Assembly (NCBI RefSeq): GCF_000711695.1
Contig: NW_013547000.1
Location: forward strand, 1-64,000
DNA length: 64,000 nucleotides
From: Tilletiaria anomala UBC 951
Lineage: Eukaryota; Basidiomycota; Exobasidiomycetes; Georgefischeriales; Tilletiariaceae
Reading direction: 5' to 3'
The position numbers and the translations under genes were made by a program. The notes beneath the pieces are model-generated. The model worked only from the letters and a program-made list of their open reading frames with translations, was not told the origin of the DNA and made no database searches. This document shows positions 3,043 to 10,711 of this stretch, piece after piece (within the stretch, counting starts at the first letter, position 1; the number at the start of each line of letters is the position of its first letter).

Positions 3043-6000
3043 ATGACGTCCGTTCCAGATGCCAATGGCGACCAGCCGACCATTCATGGCGATCGGCGAT
3101 CAAAAAAGGCTCGTGGGAAGCAAAAAGGCGCAAGGGCTTCTACGCAAGTACCTGAAGACATCAAATTGCTCGTACGATCGTTGGAAACCGCAGGGTGGGT
3201 CTTTCGGTCACGCTAGGATGGGGGCAACATTAACCAACAGAGGGCAACGTTTCTTTTTGTAGATCTGTTTCGGCGCTCCGAGCTCAGCTAGGATCTTGCA
3301 TAGATTTGATCAGCAGTGCTTCTGATCTTGCCTCAGCCCTTCAGGCCTTGGTAACATGGGCAAATCGAATGAAAACCTACGCCGTCGAAGGGCTTCTCAC
3401 GGACGATGAGCAAGAGCGATTGTGCGACGTTATTTGGGAAGCATTCGACGCGCCGCAACCTTACATCGCCCCTCTCGCCAAAAGCCTCTTGGTTGGCTTG
3501 CTAGATTCAATTCTCTCATCTCCTGATGCTGAGCCACCTCGTTGTCGCTTGCTGGACCTGATCATATCGCGGAGTCTGACCAATATCTGGCGCAAGAAGG
3601 CAATCTTCGCGTTTGAGACGTTGCACGAGCGCTACGGCACTGGCTTTTTCTTCAACAAAGAGCTCATGGGACTTGACTCGATCGGTAACATCTACTCAGG
3701 GCTCATGCAGGCGCCTAAGGGCCTAGAGAGTAGCAGCAGACGTAGAGCAAATATCGCCATCGCCATCTTGCAAGAGGATGCAAAAAGACTAGGGCTCATT
3801 CATTGCAAGGGCAATCTTGTCTGTGAAGGAACGGAGAGATCTGTCCTACAGAGAAAATGGGATATATGGTGCAGTCACTGGGTTGAGCCGTTGAGCTTCG
3901 TGCTTCGGTCCTCCACGACAAGACAGAGGGCGACGATGGGCGCGCATCACCTGGTTGACCTCTTCAACTTTTCGCATTCAGCCTTGCAGGCTCTGCTTCA
4001 TCATCTTTGCCGAGGAGAGACGATGCCACCCTCGGACTCATCATCATATGGAAATGAGGAACGTTTCATTACCACGCGGGCTCCAGCGATTCTGAGTGTT
4101 CTCAAATTCGGCAAGGACCTTGGGCTGATCACTACGGTCGAAGGAGGACATCACAGGCGCGTAGTACCTCTTGGAGAACCAGTCGACCTCACGATAGGCG
4201 CAGACTCAGGCGCCCTCGTATCTGTTCCGGCACTCATCATGTCCATGTGGCTCAACACTGCGAATCAGGAAGTGCAGCTCGGTACGCTAGGGCTGATCAT
4301 ATCGTCCAAGCAACCCACTCTGCCTCTATCCAAGGCGGAACTCGACATCATTGCCACCTATTTAGGCTCAACATTCGAAGGCCTTTCTCCAGAAAGCAGG
4401 ACTGCCGCGCGCGGCTGCGTATGCCATCTGCTCACTCGACTGCAGGCAAGCACTTACGCAGCCAATAGGACCTTGGAAGGGAGGAGCGGGAAAAAGGACG
4501 CCCAGGCTCTTTCAACACAACAGCGCATCATTGCCGATGCCCACACGTTTTTGAGGGAAGTGGAGACAATGATACGTCAACATCTGCGGTTGGGCTCTTC
4601 GTTCCCCGCAGCATCGCAGGCGCTCACGTATCTCGAGATCTTTTTTGACGCTAAGGTTGACGCGCGATTGCGCAGTGCTGCAAACCACCCTGAGGGAAAG
4701 AAAGATGCTTTCCCTTTTACAGTGGTCCTTACAGATTGTGACATGGTCGACAGATTGCTGCAGATGGCACATAGCACATATGACGCCTTGTCCGAGCGTG
4801 CAATCAAGGTACTAAAGCGCTTCCCAGGACCGCTGCCCGGTATGGAAAACAAAGACGATGTCGAACAACGCATCTTATTCCCGGCAAAAAGACTGCTATT
4901 GAGCACCAAAGAATTCGAAGGCATCAATGGAGCCGCACTATTAGACCTCTATCAGTACATGTACGTCAAAGGCTTGGGATGGCCGGCCCTATCTTTCACG
5001 CCTAATGTCGCCGTCGATACTGCTATAGCCCAACCGATGGGCCGATGCATTGCCGCTTTGCTCGGTAGCTTGGAAGAAGGCATCCATGTCGCTGAGATCG
5101 GCATGCTGAAAGATGTCGCCATCACCCATCCTTTGCACGGAACGTTGACTGCCCTGCAGCATATGTTCAGCAAATTCAAACTCGACGAAGACACGGGCCA
5201 TCACGATGAAATGCGCGCCCTATCAGAACGTGCGTTCCAAGCCATCGATCGCATTTGGGTCATCGTATCCCCCGTGCTGTGTAGTGCTGCACCAGAGGGA
5301 AATCTAGGAGAAGTTGACGAGCGAACGACCGCGATGGCGCAAATGACAATCGAGGACGGAGACCGCATGGCCTCGACGGATGTAAGCCCAGAAGCGGACG
5401 GAGAGGCTGAGCCCAAAACAAATGGGACAGGGTACCAAACCGTTCTGTCTTATGCATGGCGAGCCATCAAAGAATCGTCCGCTCTCGTTAGTTCTATTTC
5501 TGCAGCTACATACACGCCCTCGCCTCGGCCTCTGTGGAACCTTGCGGAAACAGATGCACTAGGACAACGCTTCATTACTTGGTTGATGCATGTGCGTCAT
5601 CGCGGCGCCTTCAGCACGATTTATCCGGCATTTGCAACGACCAGCGGCGCCATTATTCGTTTTGGCGATGCGGAACAAAGTCTGCTCCCACAGAAATGGC
5701 TTCAATATTTTATCGGAGCCATTGCTGGACCTTCTGGTGCGCTCACTATCACACGGCGCAGTGCAGGCCTGGCCTATTCTGTCGTGGCTCTGCTCACAGC
5801 TCACGTTCACGAGCACGCCATCATTGAACGAACAATTGTTCGCCTCATCGAGGTCTGCGAAGAAGACCAGAAGGACAAAAGTTCAATGCAGAATACACCA
5901 CAAATCCACGCATTCAACACACTGAGGTACATCGTCGCAGATGGCATGTTAGCCCCAGCTTGCAAGCCGTTTCTTTCCACCCTCATCTCTCTTGCCATAT

Positions 6001-7853
6001 CTCGCTTCTCTTCTAGCTTATGGACTTTGCGAAATGCAGCTTTGATGCTCTTTTCTGCAGCCTGCATCCGCATCTTCTCGCTCCAGATGGTCAACAAGCG
6101 GGATGCCAGGCTCATGCTCACTTTTCGCGAGTTCCTCACCCGTTTCCCTGGGCTGGACGACTTTTTCGCCAAAGAGTTGCGACAGTGCAATGCTGCGCTG
6201 CAGGGCATTTCTGGCGAAGCCGGCGCGGATACTAGAGCGTTTGCGATCCTGATCTTTATATCTAACGTGAGATCGGCGGAGATGCAAGATCTGCCAGAGA
6301 CTGTCGCTCTCGTCAAAGCTGTCAAAATGTGCCTTGAGAGCTCTATTTGGAAGGTGAGAAGCACAATACGAGGCCACACTGATTGTCGAGCCGTTTTTCT
6401 GACCCCTGCATGCCTTCAGATTCGAGAAATGGCAGCATATGCCCTTGTTGCTCTGACGCCGGAGAGTAAAAGGATGGAAGCCGCACATTGTCTCTGCGCC
6501 GCGCCTGTGCATGGCACCAACTGGTTGCACGGCACTTGGCTTGCCATCTGGCATCTGCTCAGAAGTACCGTCAATTCAGACTCCCTCGGCACAACTGGAG
6601 ATGCCGAATCTGTGCTAGAAGCCTGCAAGGGTCAAGCGCAGGCTTCCTCAACAGTGCCAGCCTCCATTTTAACCCTCGTCAATCTGTCTCTGAGCAAGCT
6701 ATCACAAAGTGTCGACCGTCCAGGCAACGCCGAGTCTCACTACCAGCTTGCGGGAAGTCTGCGAGAACTCATCGCCATCCTGGACATCACACAATGCGTC
6801 CCACAAAAAGAAAATTTGCTTCTCTCGCTAGGATCAACATTGAATGCGGGCGCTGGTAACGACATACAGGCTATCACAGCAGCGATGCAGCGCATCGCAG
6901 CCGCATCCGATGAGCATGAGGTACATAGTGGCACGCTTCGCCCATGCTCACTTACCGTGCTGACGCTTTGTCTTTGCAGGCCGAGACGACGCGCGCTGCC
7001 GCTTTGCGAGCCCTGCGCCGCGTTCCTTTCGAAAATTTCGCGACGTCGACGCACGTGCTAGGGTTTGTTGCGCTGCTGAACTTTTTGCAGGACGATGATG
7101 AGACATTGCGCGACGAAGCAGCGGGATTGACAGCAGAGTACCTCGCATCGCAAACACAGGCCGCTCAGACGTATCATGGGCCTTATGACCTGCTCTTTGA
7201 AGAGAGTCCGCGATTGGGCTCCAGCCCATCCCGCTGCATTATCCTACTACATGCGCGACTAAATCTACTTCTGAAGTTCCGAATTCCCTGGTCACGCTAT
7301 CTGCTAGAGCAGTTGCTGCCTGACGATGAAGAATTTGGTGAGGATTAACTGCAAAAAATAACGGCGACAGCTGCTGACATGGCCTCTCTGTGGTGCTCTT
7401 TCTCTAGAACATCAATTTCTGCGCGCATTCCCGGCGCAGACTCGGCTGTTCTCCGAGGAGAGGCCGAATCTTCACAAAGATCGCGTAGCCGACGTGAAAC
7501 GACTTCTCCAGTCGGCATCGAAAATGCATTTGCTGTCTCTACCGGAGGCTCGCGAACAGGCCGGGCGGATACAGAAGCATCTCGGACGTGCCTTTTCGCT
7601 CGTCAAAAGCACACAAGTCCGCAGTCTTTCGGGGGAAGCGGAGCTGCTCGTAACGCAATTGCTCGCCGCAGCAATGCTTTCCTGCACCTCAGACAGTGCC
7701 TCGGATGCCACCGAGCTGACAGGCTTGAGGCAAGCCATTGAATGGGCAAAAATGGACCTGGGAGTCCACATCGACACACCATCGCATCCTTTCAGTCGGC
7801 AAGCAGCGACTCGGGACGACAAGGCACTCTTACGCCCCCATCGAATAGCGTAA
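3043..7853 (+). CDS. TRM732: TRM732/THADA-family tRNA 2'-O-methylation subunit
   Basis: Exons 3043-3194, 3263-6353, 6420-6920, 6980-7337 and 7408-7853 give 1515 residues, close to yeast Trm732 (about 1420). The family is the non-catalytic partner of the Trm7/FTSJ1 methyltransferase that modifies position 32 of the tRNA anticodon loop, and is an alpha-helical repeat protein. The DUF2428 signature is visible around residues 930-990 (HAFNTLRYIVADG, then SSLWTLRNAALMLFSAA), followed by IREMAAYALVALTP across the third intron. That intron (6354-6419, 66 bp) is divisible by three and open, so retention would insert 22 residues. The C-terminal LFSEERPNLHKDRV block fits the THADA end. Start chosen as the first ATG in the exon 1 frame, since the upstream extension begins with GTG. 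The stop TAA (7851-7853) lies inside a consensus donor, GTAAGA at 7850, and splicing there would fuse this frame to GPI3. Confidence 0.85.
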
Positions 7854-9465
7854 GAGACTGCCGCCAGGCGAAGAGTGTATTGTAGCTTCTCACTGAGCTA
7901 CGCTCGCTGCCCTTGAACAGAATGATTTCAGACTTCTTCTTTCCGAATGTGGGGGGCGTTGAAGGGCACATCTACATGATCAGCCAACGGCTGCTGGCCC
8001 GAGGACACAAAGTTATTGTCATCACGCATGCGTACGATCCAGATCGGGTTGGCGTGCGCTTTCTTGCCGGCGGCCTCAAGGTTTATTACGTCCCATATGG
8101 GGTCATCGCGCAGCAGGACGCACTGCCGAACTTCCTGGCTCTCTTAGCACCGCTGCGCACCATCTTGATTCGAGAACAGATCCAGATTGTCCACTCGCAC
8201 CAAGCCTTATCCTCTATGGGCCATGAGGGGATCACACACGCGAAAACGATGGGTATCAAGGCGGTTTTCACTGACCATTCTCTCTTTGGTTTCGCGGATG
8301 CGGCTGCGATCATGACCAACAAGCTACTCAGGTTTGCATTGAGCGACATTGACCATGTGGTCTGCGTGAGCAATGTCGGGTGAGTGTCCTCGCGGAAATC
8401 GCCTCCATGGCGTTCTGACAATGACCGTACTGGCCTGCAGAAAGGAAAACACGGTTCTCAGAGCCCACGTGGATCCTTCGATCGTGTCGACAATTCCAAA
8501 TGCTGCAGTCACTTCACAATTCTTACCAAGGCCAGACGCAGCCGGCCTTGGACTGCGTGAGCTCCGAGTGCATATACTAGCGTTGGAAGAAATTCTTACA
8601 CAAATCCGCCTTGCAACCTTTAGTGACCATAGTCGTTCTCAGCCGACTAATGTACCGCAAGGGCATTGATCTACTCATCGCTGCGATTCCGCGCATCTGC
8701 AGTCTTCATCCGGACGTGCATTTCGTCGTGGGAGGTGACGGTCCAAAAAGAGTGGAGCTTGAGCAGATGCGCGAGCGCTTTTTTTTGCAAGATCGTGTCG
8801 AACTCGTGGGGGCTGTCCCTCGAAGCAAAGTAAAAGAAGTGCGTCCCTTTAAACGGCAGGTGGTTTCGACAAGGATAGGTGGCTAAGATCGCTCTACCTT
8901 CCTGCACGTTCTTCCTCAGCATCTGACACGCGGGCAAATCTTCCTCAACACGTCACTGACCGAAGCGTTCGGTACGGGCATTGTCGAAGCTGCTTCGTGC
9001 GGACTCTTCATCGTGAGCACACGCGTAGGCGGTGTGCCTGAGGTGCTACCTGCGGCGATGATGCAGCTGGCCGAGCCGCACGAGGAAGACATCGTCAGCG
9101 CAACCAGTGCCGCCATCACATACGTGCGCAGCGGGCAACATGACCCAAATCAATACCACGAGGCTGTCAAAGAGATGTACTCGTGGAGTGATGCTGCAGA
9201 GAGACTTGAGAAGGTCTATGACCATGTCATTGTCAAAGAAACTGTAGACCCTGTCACGCGGCTGCGCAAGTGAGTCCGGTGCACTGAGACGTTGCTTTTT
9301 AACCACAGAGCTGACCAACACCAACTTTGTATGACCAGCTATTATTCGTGCGGTCCCATTGCCGGCTTTGTCTTTTGCATCATTGTTGTCGTCGACATGC
9401 TGCATCTGAAGCTCTTGGAGTGGCTGCTTCCGGCCGAAGAGGTGGATAGGGCAATCAACGTTTAG
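7752..9465 (+). CDS. GPI3: GPI-GlcNAc transferase catalytic subunit (PIG-A)
   Basis: This is the catalytic subunit of the ER complex that moves GlcNAc from UDP-GlcNAc to phosphatidylinositol, the first step of GPI-anchor synthesis (GT4 family). Exons 7752-7849, 7921-8379, 8441-8556, 8624-8838, 8920-9269 and 9339-9465 give 454 residues. Visible features are HRIAMISDFFFPNVGGVEGH at the N-terminus, SRLMYRKGIDLL in the nucleotide-sugar domain, the EX7E catalytic motif (EAFGTGIVE, about 311-319) and a C-terminal membrane segment (about 417-435). The HRIA residues come from an exon shared with the end of TRM732, joined by intron 7850-7920. ATG 7752 (MDLGVH) is the nearest upstream in-frame start. 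ATG 7922 would give a shorter protein lacking HRIA. With no stop between the two genes, the spliced product may be a 1936-residue TRM732-GPI3 fusion. Identity is sure; the 5' end is not. Confidence 0.9.
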
Positions 9466-9512: not shown

Positions 9513-10131
9513 TTATTTTTTGCCAGGTGGCTTCGCTTGCGCTTTGTTCGGGTCATACACTTCCTGAGTAGCTTGCATGAGCTCATGCAGCTGGTACAAT
9601 TGCTCCTCCGAAAGCTGGAAGAATCAACGTCTGTCAGATAAATCATGGTGATATTGTCATAACCATCATTCTACACACCTTTTCCATCATGTCTGGGTCT
9701 AGCCGTCTTCCTTCGAAGCATTTCCGCTTAGCTGATCCTACCGAGGGACTGCTTCCAACTCCACCTGAACTATCAATTGCTTCAAGCTCTAGCGTGTCCA
9801 AATACATCTTCCAGGAACTCAAGAAGCCGACGATCTGGAGCGGGTTGTCGATCGCCCGATGGCGCCTGAACTCGTCTTTGACATAGTTGTCACCCAAACT
9901 GCGCATCTCGGGATTAAGCCCTTGGCGATGCGCCCTAAACAAACGACGGTAGAGCTGTATTGGTGGTAATAAGGACTGTGCGGCTGTGCTAACCGCTGCG
10001 CTGGGCGCGTCCGAGGCGACGGACGATGGAGGTGAACCGGAGAACGCCGTGGCAGCGCCGCGACGAAGCATGGGTTGCAAAAGGATGAATGCAGATGTTC
10101 CGCGTTGGATTAGGGAAGATGAGAGCCACAT
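9513..10131 (-). CDS. SDHAF3: Succinate dehydrogenase assembly factor 3
   Basis: An LYR-family mitochondrial matrix chaperone (yeast Sdh7/Acn9) that helps mature the iron-sulfur subunit of complex II. Exon 1 is 10131-9679 and exon 2 is 9614-9513, with intron 9615-9678. The LYR core is seen as [10 protein letters not shown], then [16 protein letters not shown] and [12 protein letters not shown], all typical of the family. Exon 2 supplies [20 protein letters not shown] and ends PPGKK. I prefer ATG 10131 because it opens a basic, serine-rich mitochondrial presequence ([11 protein letters not shown]). An in-frame ATG at 10203 adds 24 less presequence-like residues. A serine/glycine insertion ([13 protein letters not shown]) sits between the core and the last helix. 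Its stop lies 47 bp from the GPI3 stop, so the two 3' ends face each other. Confidence 0.9.
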
Positions 10132-10711
10132 TTTGCGTGTCGAGGTGCAAATGGCTGCTTTGAAAGGACCGGTCTCCGCGGGGGAGCCATGCACGGTGTG
10201 CATAGATCACCGAGAGCCCCCAGATGCTGCTAACAAGAATACGGATGACCATCTCGATGTGTTCAGCTGTTTGCATGCTGAAGGGGAGACTTGGAAGGAG
10301 CGTTTCTTACGTTACGAGTAGAAGCCCACGGGCGGGCCGAGGAAAGTAGGGTTTTCCCAGTAGCCATCCTTCTACACTCTAAACATATTGGCTCTACGAG
10401 TACGGATGGCAGCACAACGATCCTGTGCTCCACATGCCAAAACCACCATCTTTAAAGGGGGAGAGAGGAGATATCGGTTATGTCTCGCAGCCGCTGCACG
10501 TGGATGCGCCTAATGAAGCATAGGCACTCGATGCTACCGTGAATACACTTGCGTCTTTGGCGGCAGTTCATCCACCATCTGAACTCCCGCTCTCAAGGCG
10601 GCACGTTAGCAGCATCACCACAACCACTCCGAGCATGCCACGGTGATCCAGTGATCTACTTGCAAGAGGCAAGGAGTGTAAGCGCCCACAGAAGCGGCAG
10701 GATTGGCCAGC
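10132..10711. promoter_or_regulatory. Shared SDHAF3 / LRR-gene divergent promoter
   Basis: About 580 bp separates the two divergent starts, or 508 bp if SDHAF3 begins at 10203. No other gene is evident. No clear TATA box stands out. Confidence 0.4.

What the first reader, a model, noticed from the sequence alone, without database searches (positions are those of the whole stretch)
7408..8379. TRM732 and GPI3 form one continuous spliced frame
Seen: the last TRM732 exon has no stop before a consensus donor (GTAAGA, 7850). Splicing to the acceptor CAG at 7920 keeps frame and builds HRIAMISDFFFPN, the normal PIG-A N-terminus. The HRIA residues therefore sit at the end of what otherwise reads as TRM732. 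The TRM732 stop TAA (7851-7853) exists only if that intron is kept, and it overlaps the donor. So intron retention gives TRM732 alone, splicing gives a 1936-residue fusion, and an internal start (ATG 7752) gives GPI3 alone. One donor may choose between a tRNA-modification partner and the first enzyme of GPI anchors. I know of no described link between the two.
Basis: partly seen in the sequence, partly recalled or inferred. Interest (0 to 1): 0.75.

Follow-up and report, generated by a model that had tools for sequence, protein, structure and literature searches.

The report
Conserved TRM732-GPI3 fusion gene
In this smut-like fungus the gene for a tRNA-modification helper runs without a break into the gene for the first enzyme of GPI-anchor synthesis; relatives from smuts to skin yeasts share the arrangement, so it is probably one real double-headed protein that would sit on the endoplasmic reticulum.

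Summary
The window is Tilletiaria anomala; its public model (1850 aa) is an exact suffix of mine and uses the same junction. It is not peculiar to this genome: TRM732-GPI3 proteins are annotated in 12 Ustilaginomycotina species, and of 17 further TRM732-only models that reach the junction 15 end exactly at the shared ...IA, i.e. at an unspliced intron. The standalone GPI3 start has gone: a Met lies within 10 residues upstream of IA in 1 of 29 such proteins, against 61 of 69 other GPI3s. All six fused Malassezia also lack the Met of AM(V/I)SDFF. TRM732 and GPI3 are single copy here.

Best reading: an old gene fusion giving one bifunctional protein, TRM732 tethered to the cytosolic ER face by GPI3. 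The 'one donor chooses' switch is not supported: a stop in the donor is what a phase-2 intron with a GTRAG donor gives (3 of 4 phase-2 introns in this gene). Not every lineage has the fusion. Junction-specific RNA evidence is lacking. No paper describing the fusion was found in the searches named.

The parts
3043..3194 (+). exon 1 of the fused gene (TRM732 N-terminus); missing from the public model
   Evidence: in frame through intron 3195-3262; the first 130 residues match the N-terminus of 1 of 6 relatives compared, Acaromyces P0132, E 7.5e-8
3263..6353 (+). exon 2: TRM732 repeats and the DUF2428/THADA core
   Evidence: PF25150, PF10350 in P0121; PF10350 at 5220-6026
6420..6920 (+). exon 3: TRM732
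   Evidence: identical in P0121
6980..7337 (+). exon 4: TRM732
7408..7849 (+). junction exon 5: TRM732 C-terminal part, linker, and the first residues of GPI3 (HRI plus two bases of A)
   Evidence: strand 1 of the GT fold spans the junction in the model of M. furfur P0130
7752..7754 (+).
7850..7920 (+). junction intron, 71 bases, phase 2, GTAAGA...CAG; branch-like CTCAC at 7889
   Evidence: used in P0121
7851..7853 (+). TAA that ends the frame only if the intron is kept
7921..8379 (+). exon 6: GPI3 (PIG-A) N-terminal domain; ATG 7922 is a second possible start
   Evidence: PF08288 at 8027-8299
8441..8556 (+). exon 7: GPI3
8624..8838 (+). exon 8: GPI3
8920..9269 (+). exon 9: GPI3 glycosyltransferase C-terminal domain with EAFGTGIVE (the EX7E motif name is recalled)
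   Evidence: PF00534 in P0121
9339..9465 (+). exon 10: GPI3 C-terminal hydrophobic stretch; stop TAG 9463-9465

Best explanation
This is one gene whose main product is a single bifunctional protein: TRM732 (the partner of the Trm7 tRNA 2'-O-methyltransferase) joined at its natural C-terminus to GPI3, the catalytic subunit of the GPI GlcNAc transferase. The fusion arose early in Ustilaginomycotina when the last exon of TRM732 was joined to the small first exon of GPI3, losing the TRM732 stop and the GPI3 start and keeping an intron inside the IA codon. GPI3's catalytic domain faces the cytosol and its C-terminal helix anchors it in the ER membrane (recalled biology), so TRM732 is displayed on the cytosolic ER face, where it can still bind Trm7 and tRNA. 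Shown here: the frame, its recurrence in relatives, the loss of the GPI3 start, and single copies of both parts. Inferred: how and when the fusion arose, that the protein is made at this length, its membrane placement, and that both activities survive in it.
For: Exact frame and splice sites; the public model has the same junction. Of 29 long proteins matched by the GPI3 part, 27 carry the PIGA domain, and 12 of these also carry TRM732 domains: Tilletiaria, Thecaphora, Testicularia, Kalmanozyma, Violaceomyces, Acaromyces and six Malassezia, all Ustilaginomycotina (lineages of seven of the species looked up). 15 of 17 TRM732-only models that reach the junction end exactly at IA, the other two read 5-7 residues further. 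M. furfur shows the intron most directly: P0130 reads LCIALLSDFF, and P0215 (99% identical over 748 aligned residues) reads LCIAYADPTHP and stops. NQxRD-to-IA stretches have 23 lengths (86-180) in 29 proteins, all open. Met within 10 residues upstream of IA/IC: 1 of 29 against 61 of 69 other GPI3s. 6 of 6 fused Malassezia read IAL/VAL. Outgroup TRM732 ends where the fused linker begins. One match each to DUF2428 and PIGA in the genome, with GPI1, GPI2, PIG-H and FtsJ-family proteins elsewhere. 93% of T. anomala models are supported by transcripts over more than 75% of their length (PMC4056295, passages).
Against: No junction-specific RNA read or peptide was seen; the 93% figure is genome-wide. 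Fused rows are gene predictions, and some of the 29 rows are near-duplicates (M. furfur twice). The fused label does not form one clade on the GPI3 tree (8 changes, at least 5 forced), partly because annotation splits some relatives. Some relatives look unfused: Tilletia GPI3s (P0004, P0005, P0012, P0020) and two Exobasidium/Acaromyces-like GPI3-only models (P0007, P0026) have their own N-termini of 31-44 residues before IA; Microstroma P0165 and its relative P0166 end without IA, and Sympodiomycopsis GPI3 is joined to a kinase. Of 24 Ustilaginomycotina-like TRM732-only models in the list, five (P0150-P0152, P0174, P0190) stop before the junction, for the last two (Malassezia-like) for reasons not determined. 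The fold model rests on 12 sequences (mean pLDDT 69, pTM 0.48). In T. anomala itself a GPI3 starting at ATG 7922 is possible: 25 of 101 other GPI3 rows start at that Met, a Schizosaccharomyces one included. Only proteins, no relatives' DNA, could be compared (searches found none).
Confidence: 0.78

Rival explanations
1. Two outputs from one gene: splicing gives the fusion, and retention of the junction intron (or polyadenylation inside it) gives TRM732 ending in HRIA. The ratio may be regulated. This can coexist with the best explanation.
For: A stop follows the split codon at once if the intron is kept. The intron appears at the same codon in Tilletiaria, smuts and Malassezia. Precedent: one SKI7/HBS1 gene makes two proteins in fungi; for U. 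maydis the authors suggest that an annotated intron is not a true intron, giving a truncated protein (PMC3597508, abstract and one section read).
Against: The stop in the donor is mechanical: 3 of 4 phase-2 introns of this gene have it. The donor is ordinary for the gene. That 25 of 101 other GPI3 models start exactly at the next Met suggests an intron there older than the fusion (inference), so it need not have evolved as a switch. No RNA evidence.
Confidence: 0.22
2. Two overlapping but separate genes: GPI3 has its own promoter inside the last TRM732 exon and starts at ATG 7752 or 7922, and gene callers have chained neighbours.
For: ATG 7752 has A at -3 and G at +4; ATG 7922 gives MISDFFFPN, a start seen in 25 of 101 other GPI3 rows. 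GPI3 models joined to other partners exist and some look chained. Six GPI3-only models within the subphylum have their own N-termini.
Against: An open TRM732 frame runs to IA in 29 junction proteins with 23 different lengths, which separate genes would not need. No conserved start Met; all six fused Malassezia lack the AM Met. In M. vespertilionis about ten residues lie between the point where outgroup TRM732 ends and GPI3. A start at 7922 would drop HRIA, part of the first strand of the GT fold. Of five other chimeras with a readable junction behind an upstream partner, 3 keep a Met within 7 residues, as chaining would.
Confidence: 0.1
3. A dead or decaying junction: an accidental read-through of no consequence in this one genome.
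For: None beyond the lack of RNA data.
Against: Found in smuts, Malassezia, Acaromyces and Tilletiaria; GPI3 is single copy and its domains are intact.
Confidence: 0.01

Closest known systems
TRM732 / THADA (DUF2428)
   Same: PF25150, PF10350 and PF25151 all over cut-off; sequence match of P0121 to human THADA 8Y2O, E 6.3e-48
   Different: C-terminus runs on into GPI3 instead of ending after the last helix
GPI3 / PIG-A
   Same: PF08288 and GT4 domains over cut-off; glycosyltransferase matches for the M. furfur model; C-terminal hydrophobic stretch
   Different: no start codon of its own close to IA; about 1500 residues precede it
Single-gene, two-product SKI7/HBS1 of fungi (PMC3597508)
   Same: one locus carrying two functions, with an intron whose fate could set the product
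   Different: there alternative mRNAs are reported; here only the spliced model is annotated, and the two halves belong to unrelated pathways
Other chimeric GPI3/PIG-A models (kinase in Sympodiomycopsis, acyltransferase in Tremella, PIP5K in tapeworms)
   Same: GPI3 joined to another protein
   Different: scattered partners, one or a few species each; several look like chained annotation

Membership tests
TRM732/THADA | DUF2428 core with Trm732 repeats on both sides | tested here: met
   PF25150 104.2 bits, PF10350 207.2 bits, PF25151 95.5 bits in P0121
TRM732/THADA | binds Trm7/FTSJ1 and supports Nm32 on tRNA | not testable with these tools
   FtsJ-family proteins are encoded in the genome; binding not tested
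GPI3/PIG-A | PIGA domain plus GT4 glycosyltransferase domains | tested here: met
   PF08288 126.8 bits, PF00534, PF13439
GPI3/PIG-A | the only GPI3 of the genome, with other GPI-GnT subunits present | tested here: met
   one PIGA match; GPI2, PIG-H, GPI1 one match each; other subunits not searched
GPI3/PIG-A | own start codon a few residues before IA/IC | tested here: not met
   nearest Met upstream is 31 residues away in P0121; 61 of 69 other GPI3s have one within 10. A start at the M after IA (ATG 7922) is not excluded
Conserved gene fusion (one bifunctional protein) | continuous frame in several lineages | tested here: met
   12 fused models, plus 15 of 17 TRM732-only models ending at the same IA
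Conserved gene fusion (one bifunctional protein) | one transcript and one polypeptide | not testable with these tools
   no RNA or peptide data at hand; genome-wide 93% transcript support only
Conserved gene fusion (one bifunctional protein) | single origin on a gene tree | tested here: inconclusive
   GPI3 tree poorly resolved, label needs 8 changes, at least 5 forced; annotation splits mix in
Alternatively spliced two-product gene | a stop reached only when an intron is kept | tested here: met
   TAA 7851-7853, but also stops at 8381 and 9271 in ordinary introns, so not diagnostic
Alternatively spliced two-product gene | both transcripts present | not testable with these tools
   needs RNA reads

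The most novel reading that the evidence does not exclude
Across Ustilaginomycotina the junction intron sets the share of free TRM732 and of ER-tethered TRM732-GPI3. The Cm32 tRNA methylation step is tied to the ER membrane and to the first step of GPI anchoring, so decoding of secretory mRNAs and anchor supply are adjusted together.
Probability: 0.12. Interest if true: 0.85.

Novelty: new variant of a known kind. Interest (0 to 1): 0.62.

Why it matters
A conserved fusion of two unrelated housekeeping proteins is a hint, from evolution alone, that they work in the same place or need equal amounts. TRM732/THADA has been found on the cytosolic ER face in Drosophila, where it binds SERCA (PMC5392496, passages); here much of a fungal subphylum appears to have fixed an ER placement in the gene itself, which gives a handle on why a tRNA-modification partner should be there. 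It also means that a number of public GPI3 and TRM732 models from smuts and Malassezia are halves of one protein cut at an unspliced intron, which matters to anyone deleting or tagging either gene in these fungi.

Tried and rejected
Looked for DNA of relatives as stray contigs in the bacterial/archaeal and viral collections with M. globosa GPI3: 20 and 2 pattern hits, none confirmed. No fungal relatives' genomes are held, so intron positions in relatives are inferred: from where split protein models end and start, from two M. furfur-like models that part exactly after IA (P0130, P0215), and for M. globosa from back-translating eight residues, which allows only LR(I/V)A|GTAA(A/G) under the pattern tested.

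A single-origin test on the GPI3 tree was weak: a long Sympodiomycopsis branch, ten open forks, and annotation splits within clades (Kalmanozyma fused, P. hubeiensis split). I do not use it as support.

Codon usage: the coding frame scores best but only slightly over 7752-7849 (0.05 against -0.115 and -0.084 bits per codon). Too weak to count.

No probability is given for the run of in-frame lengths, because models out of frame would not have been listed as fused; the argument rests on the fused and the TRM732-only lists together. The fold search shows glycosyltransferases and no THADA among its 50 rows; the link to THADA rests on sequence. The frame-shift test of P0174 gave no hit.

Rows left out of the 29 junction proteins, of 24 Ustilaginomycotina-like TRM732-only models among the 120 rows listed: P0150-P0152, P0174, P0190 (stop before the junction) and P0165, P0166 (no IA). 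My first count was 13 of 14; screening the remaining rows added P0215, P0235 and P0244. Exobasidium P0014 and M. cuniculi P0115 begin inside GPI3 and say nothing about the junction. The 69 comparison GPI3s include one chimera (Tremella P0091) and a few non-fungi.

Literature: Trm732+Gpi3, 0 papers; DUF2428+N-acetylglucosaminyltransferase, 0; Malassezia+enzyme name+fusion, 0; THADA+PIGA+fungi, 3 on other subjects by listing; GPI3+fused+Ustilago maydis, 1 review seen in the listing only; gene fusion+Ustilaginomycotina, 10, listing only. Only open-licence PMC papers are covered.

Full report
What was checked. Splicing nine GT-AG introns from ATG 3043 gives one frame of 1936 residues ending at TAG 9463-9465. 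The junction intron is 7850-7920, 71 bases, phase 2; the exon before it ends HRI plus GC, the next begins A-ATG, so splicing gives HRIA-MISDFFFPNVGG, while keeping it gives GCG-TAA. The window's species is Tilletiaria anomala UBC 951 (Georgefischeriales): its public model P0121 (1850 aa, 100%) is residues 87-1936 of this frame. That model lacks the first exon, whose residues resemble the N-terminus of 1 of 6 relatives compared, Acaromyces P0132.

One copy of each. Searches of the whole 18.4 Mb genome found one DUF2428 match and one PIGA match, both here. GPI2, PIG-H and GPI1 are each found once elsewhere and there are five FtsJ-family matches, so this locus must supply both TRM732 and GPI3.

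Relatives. I searched for long proteins (about 1065-3388 aa) matching the GPI3 part: 29 reached E 0.001 among 7983 scored candidates; 27 carry the PIGA domain and 12 of these also carry TRM732 domains. The 12 are Tilletiaria, Thecaphora, Testicularia, Kalmanozyma, Violaceomyces, Acaromyces and six Malassezia, that is, three classes of Ustilaginomycotina. A search with the TRM732 core listed 120 of 157 matches. By name or best match, 24 of the listed TRM732-only rows are Ustilaginomycotina-like. Of these 17 reach the junction: 15 end exactly at IA, and two read a few residues more (P0223 IAYADSR, P0215 IAYADPTHP). Five stop earlier, and Microstroma P0165 and its relative P0166 end without IA. 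The IA ends are the GPI3 first strand, so these models are the first half of the same gene, cut at an unspliced intron. M. furfur shows it best: fused P0130 reads LCIALLSDFF, and P0215, 99% identical to it over 748 aligned residues, reads LCIAYADPTHP and stops. In S. scitamineum and P. hubeiensis the matching GPI3 model begins at MVSDFF, and the longest contig listed has the same length for both halves (791457 and 270416). For M. globosa, the odd N-terminus of its GPI3 models can be back-translated only as LR(I/V)A|GTAA(A/G), again the same intron.

The start codon has gone. One search listed 120 of 4211 GPI3 matches; I assigned 19 to Ustilaginomycotina by name or similarity. Of the other 101, 69 have residues before IA/IC and 61 of these have a Met within 10; 25 begin exactly at the M of M-xSDFF; 7 lacked the motif used. 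In the 29 junction proteins the nearest Met is 5 to 321 residues upstream, median 70, and within 10 in one. All six fused Malassezia have L in place of the M after IA. Many smut rows read PRYNIA where other fungi read M-x-YNIA. The stretch from the NQxRD motif to IA has 23 lengths (86-180) in the 29 proteins. Outgroup TRM732 proteins (two Microstroma-like rows and Meredithblackwellia) end at about the helix after which the linker begins, and in M. vespertilionis about ten residues separate that point from GPI3.

Structure. AlphaFold2 of M. furfur P0130 (1176 aa, a fused model with a truncated N-terminus, alignment of 12) shows a helical solenoid, an unstructured linker (about 651-745), then a glycosyltransferase fold whose first strand is 746-750, made of residues on both sides of the junction (mean pLDDT 69, pTM 0.48, so low confidence in detail). 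The 50 Foldseek rows shown are glycosyltransferases, with no THADA among them; THADA is matched by sequence. A GPI3 started at ATG 7922 would lose part of that strand, though a Schizosaccharomyces GPI3 is annotated with just that start (P0075), so such a start may work.

How it works, and what is inferred. The simplest account is a gene fusion in which TRM732 keeps its natural end and GPI3 its intron. [quoted passage not shown] GPI3's catalytic domain is cytosolic and its C-terminal helix is in the ER membrane (recalled). An N-terminal TRM732 is therefore on the allowed side. That both activities persist is inference.

The switch. Any phase-2 intron beginning GTAAG or GTGAG places TAA or TGA right after the split codon. 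In this gene three of four phase-2 introns do so (7851, 8381, 9271). The intron may also be older than the fusion, since GPI3 models from distant fungi begin exactly at the next Met, as they would if a tiny first exon had been missed (inference). So the anatomy does not argue for a switch. It also does not exclude one: for the U. maydis SKI7/HBS1 gene a retained 'intron' giving a truncated protein has been proposed (PMC3597508, abstract and one section read).

Results against the reading. Tilletia GPI3s and two Exobasidium/Acaromyces-like GPI3-only models have their own N-termini of 31-44 residues before IA, and Microstromatales look unfused, so the fusion is not universal in the subphylum. 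Two Malassezia-like TRM732-only models stop before the junction for reasons not determined (P0174, P0190). The GPI3 tree does not show a single origin. There is no junction RNA or peptide evidence in hand; the genome paper says only that 93% of 6,810 models are supported by transcripts over more than 75% of their length (PMC4056295, passages).

Verdict. Real, shared by many relatives, and not described in the papers searched. The interesting part is the fusion itself, not the donor.

Noticed in passing
window 3043-3262: The public T. anomala model lacks the first coding exon; 86 more N-terminal residues are in frame and resemble Acaromyces P0132.
   Followed up: yes
P0165 residues 1216-1286 (Microstroma glucosiphilum TRM732): A Pkr1 (ER membrane protein) domain, nearly complete, is inserted in the TRM732 model of a lineage that seems to lack the GPI3 fusion; the related P0166 has no such insert. 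Nested gene, wrong model or a second way to the ER: unresolved.
   Followed up: partly
P0165 C-terminus: Microstroma TRM732 ends ...RLRYTPA, faintly like RYNIA; whether this is a decayed junction is unknown.
   Followed up: no
P0174, P0190 C-termini: Two Malassezia-like TRM732-only models stop upstream of the junction at about the same place; another intron, a frame change or an assembly fault.
   Followed up: partly
P0122, P0134, P0091, P0136, P0137, P0144, P0141, P0142, P0145, P0146: GPI3/PIG-A is joined to other partners in public models: kinase (Sympodiomycopsis), acyltransferase (Tremella), Utp14 behind GPI3 (three Tulasnella), PIP5K (tapeworms), EF-hand domains (Trichinella, 42 members). 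Some recur across species.
   Followed up: partly
P0164: A smut-like TRM732 is filed under Cichorium endivia, probably contamination of a plant assembly.
   Followed up: no
window 9643-10203, minus strand: LYR-family protein (PF13233) encoded tail to tail with the fused gene.
   Followed up: partly
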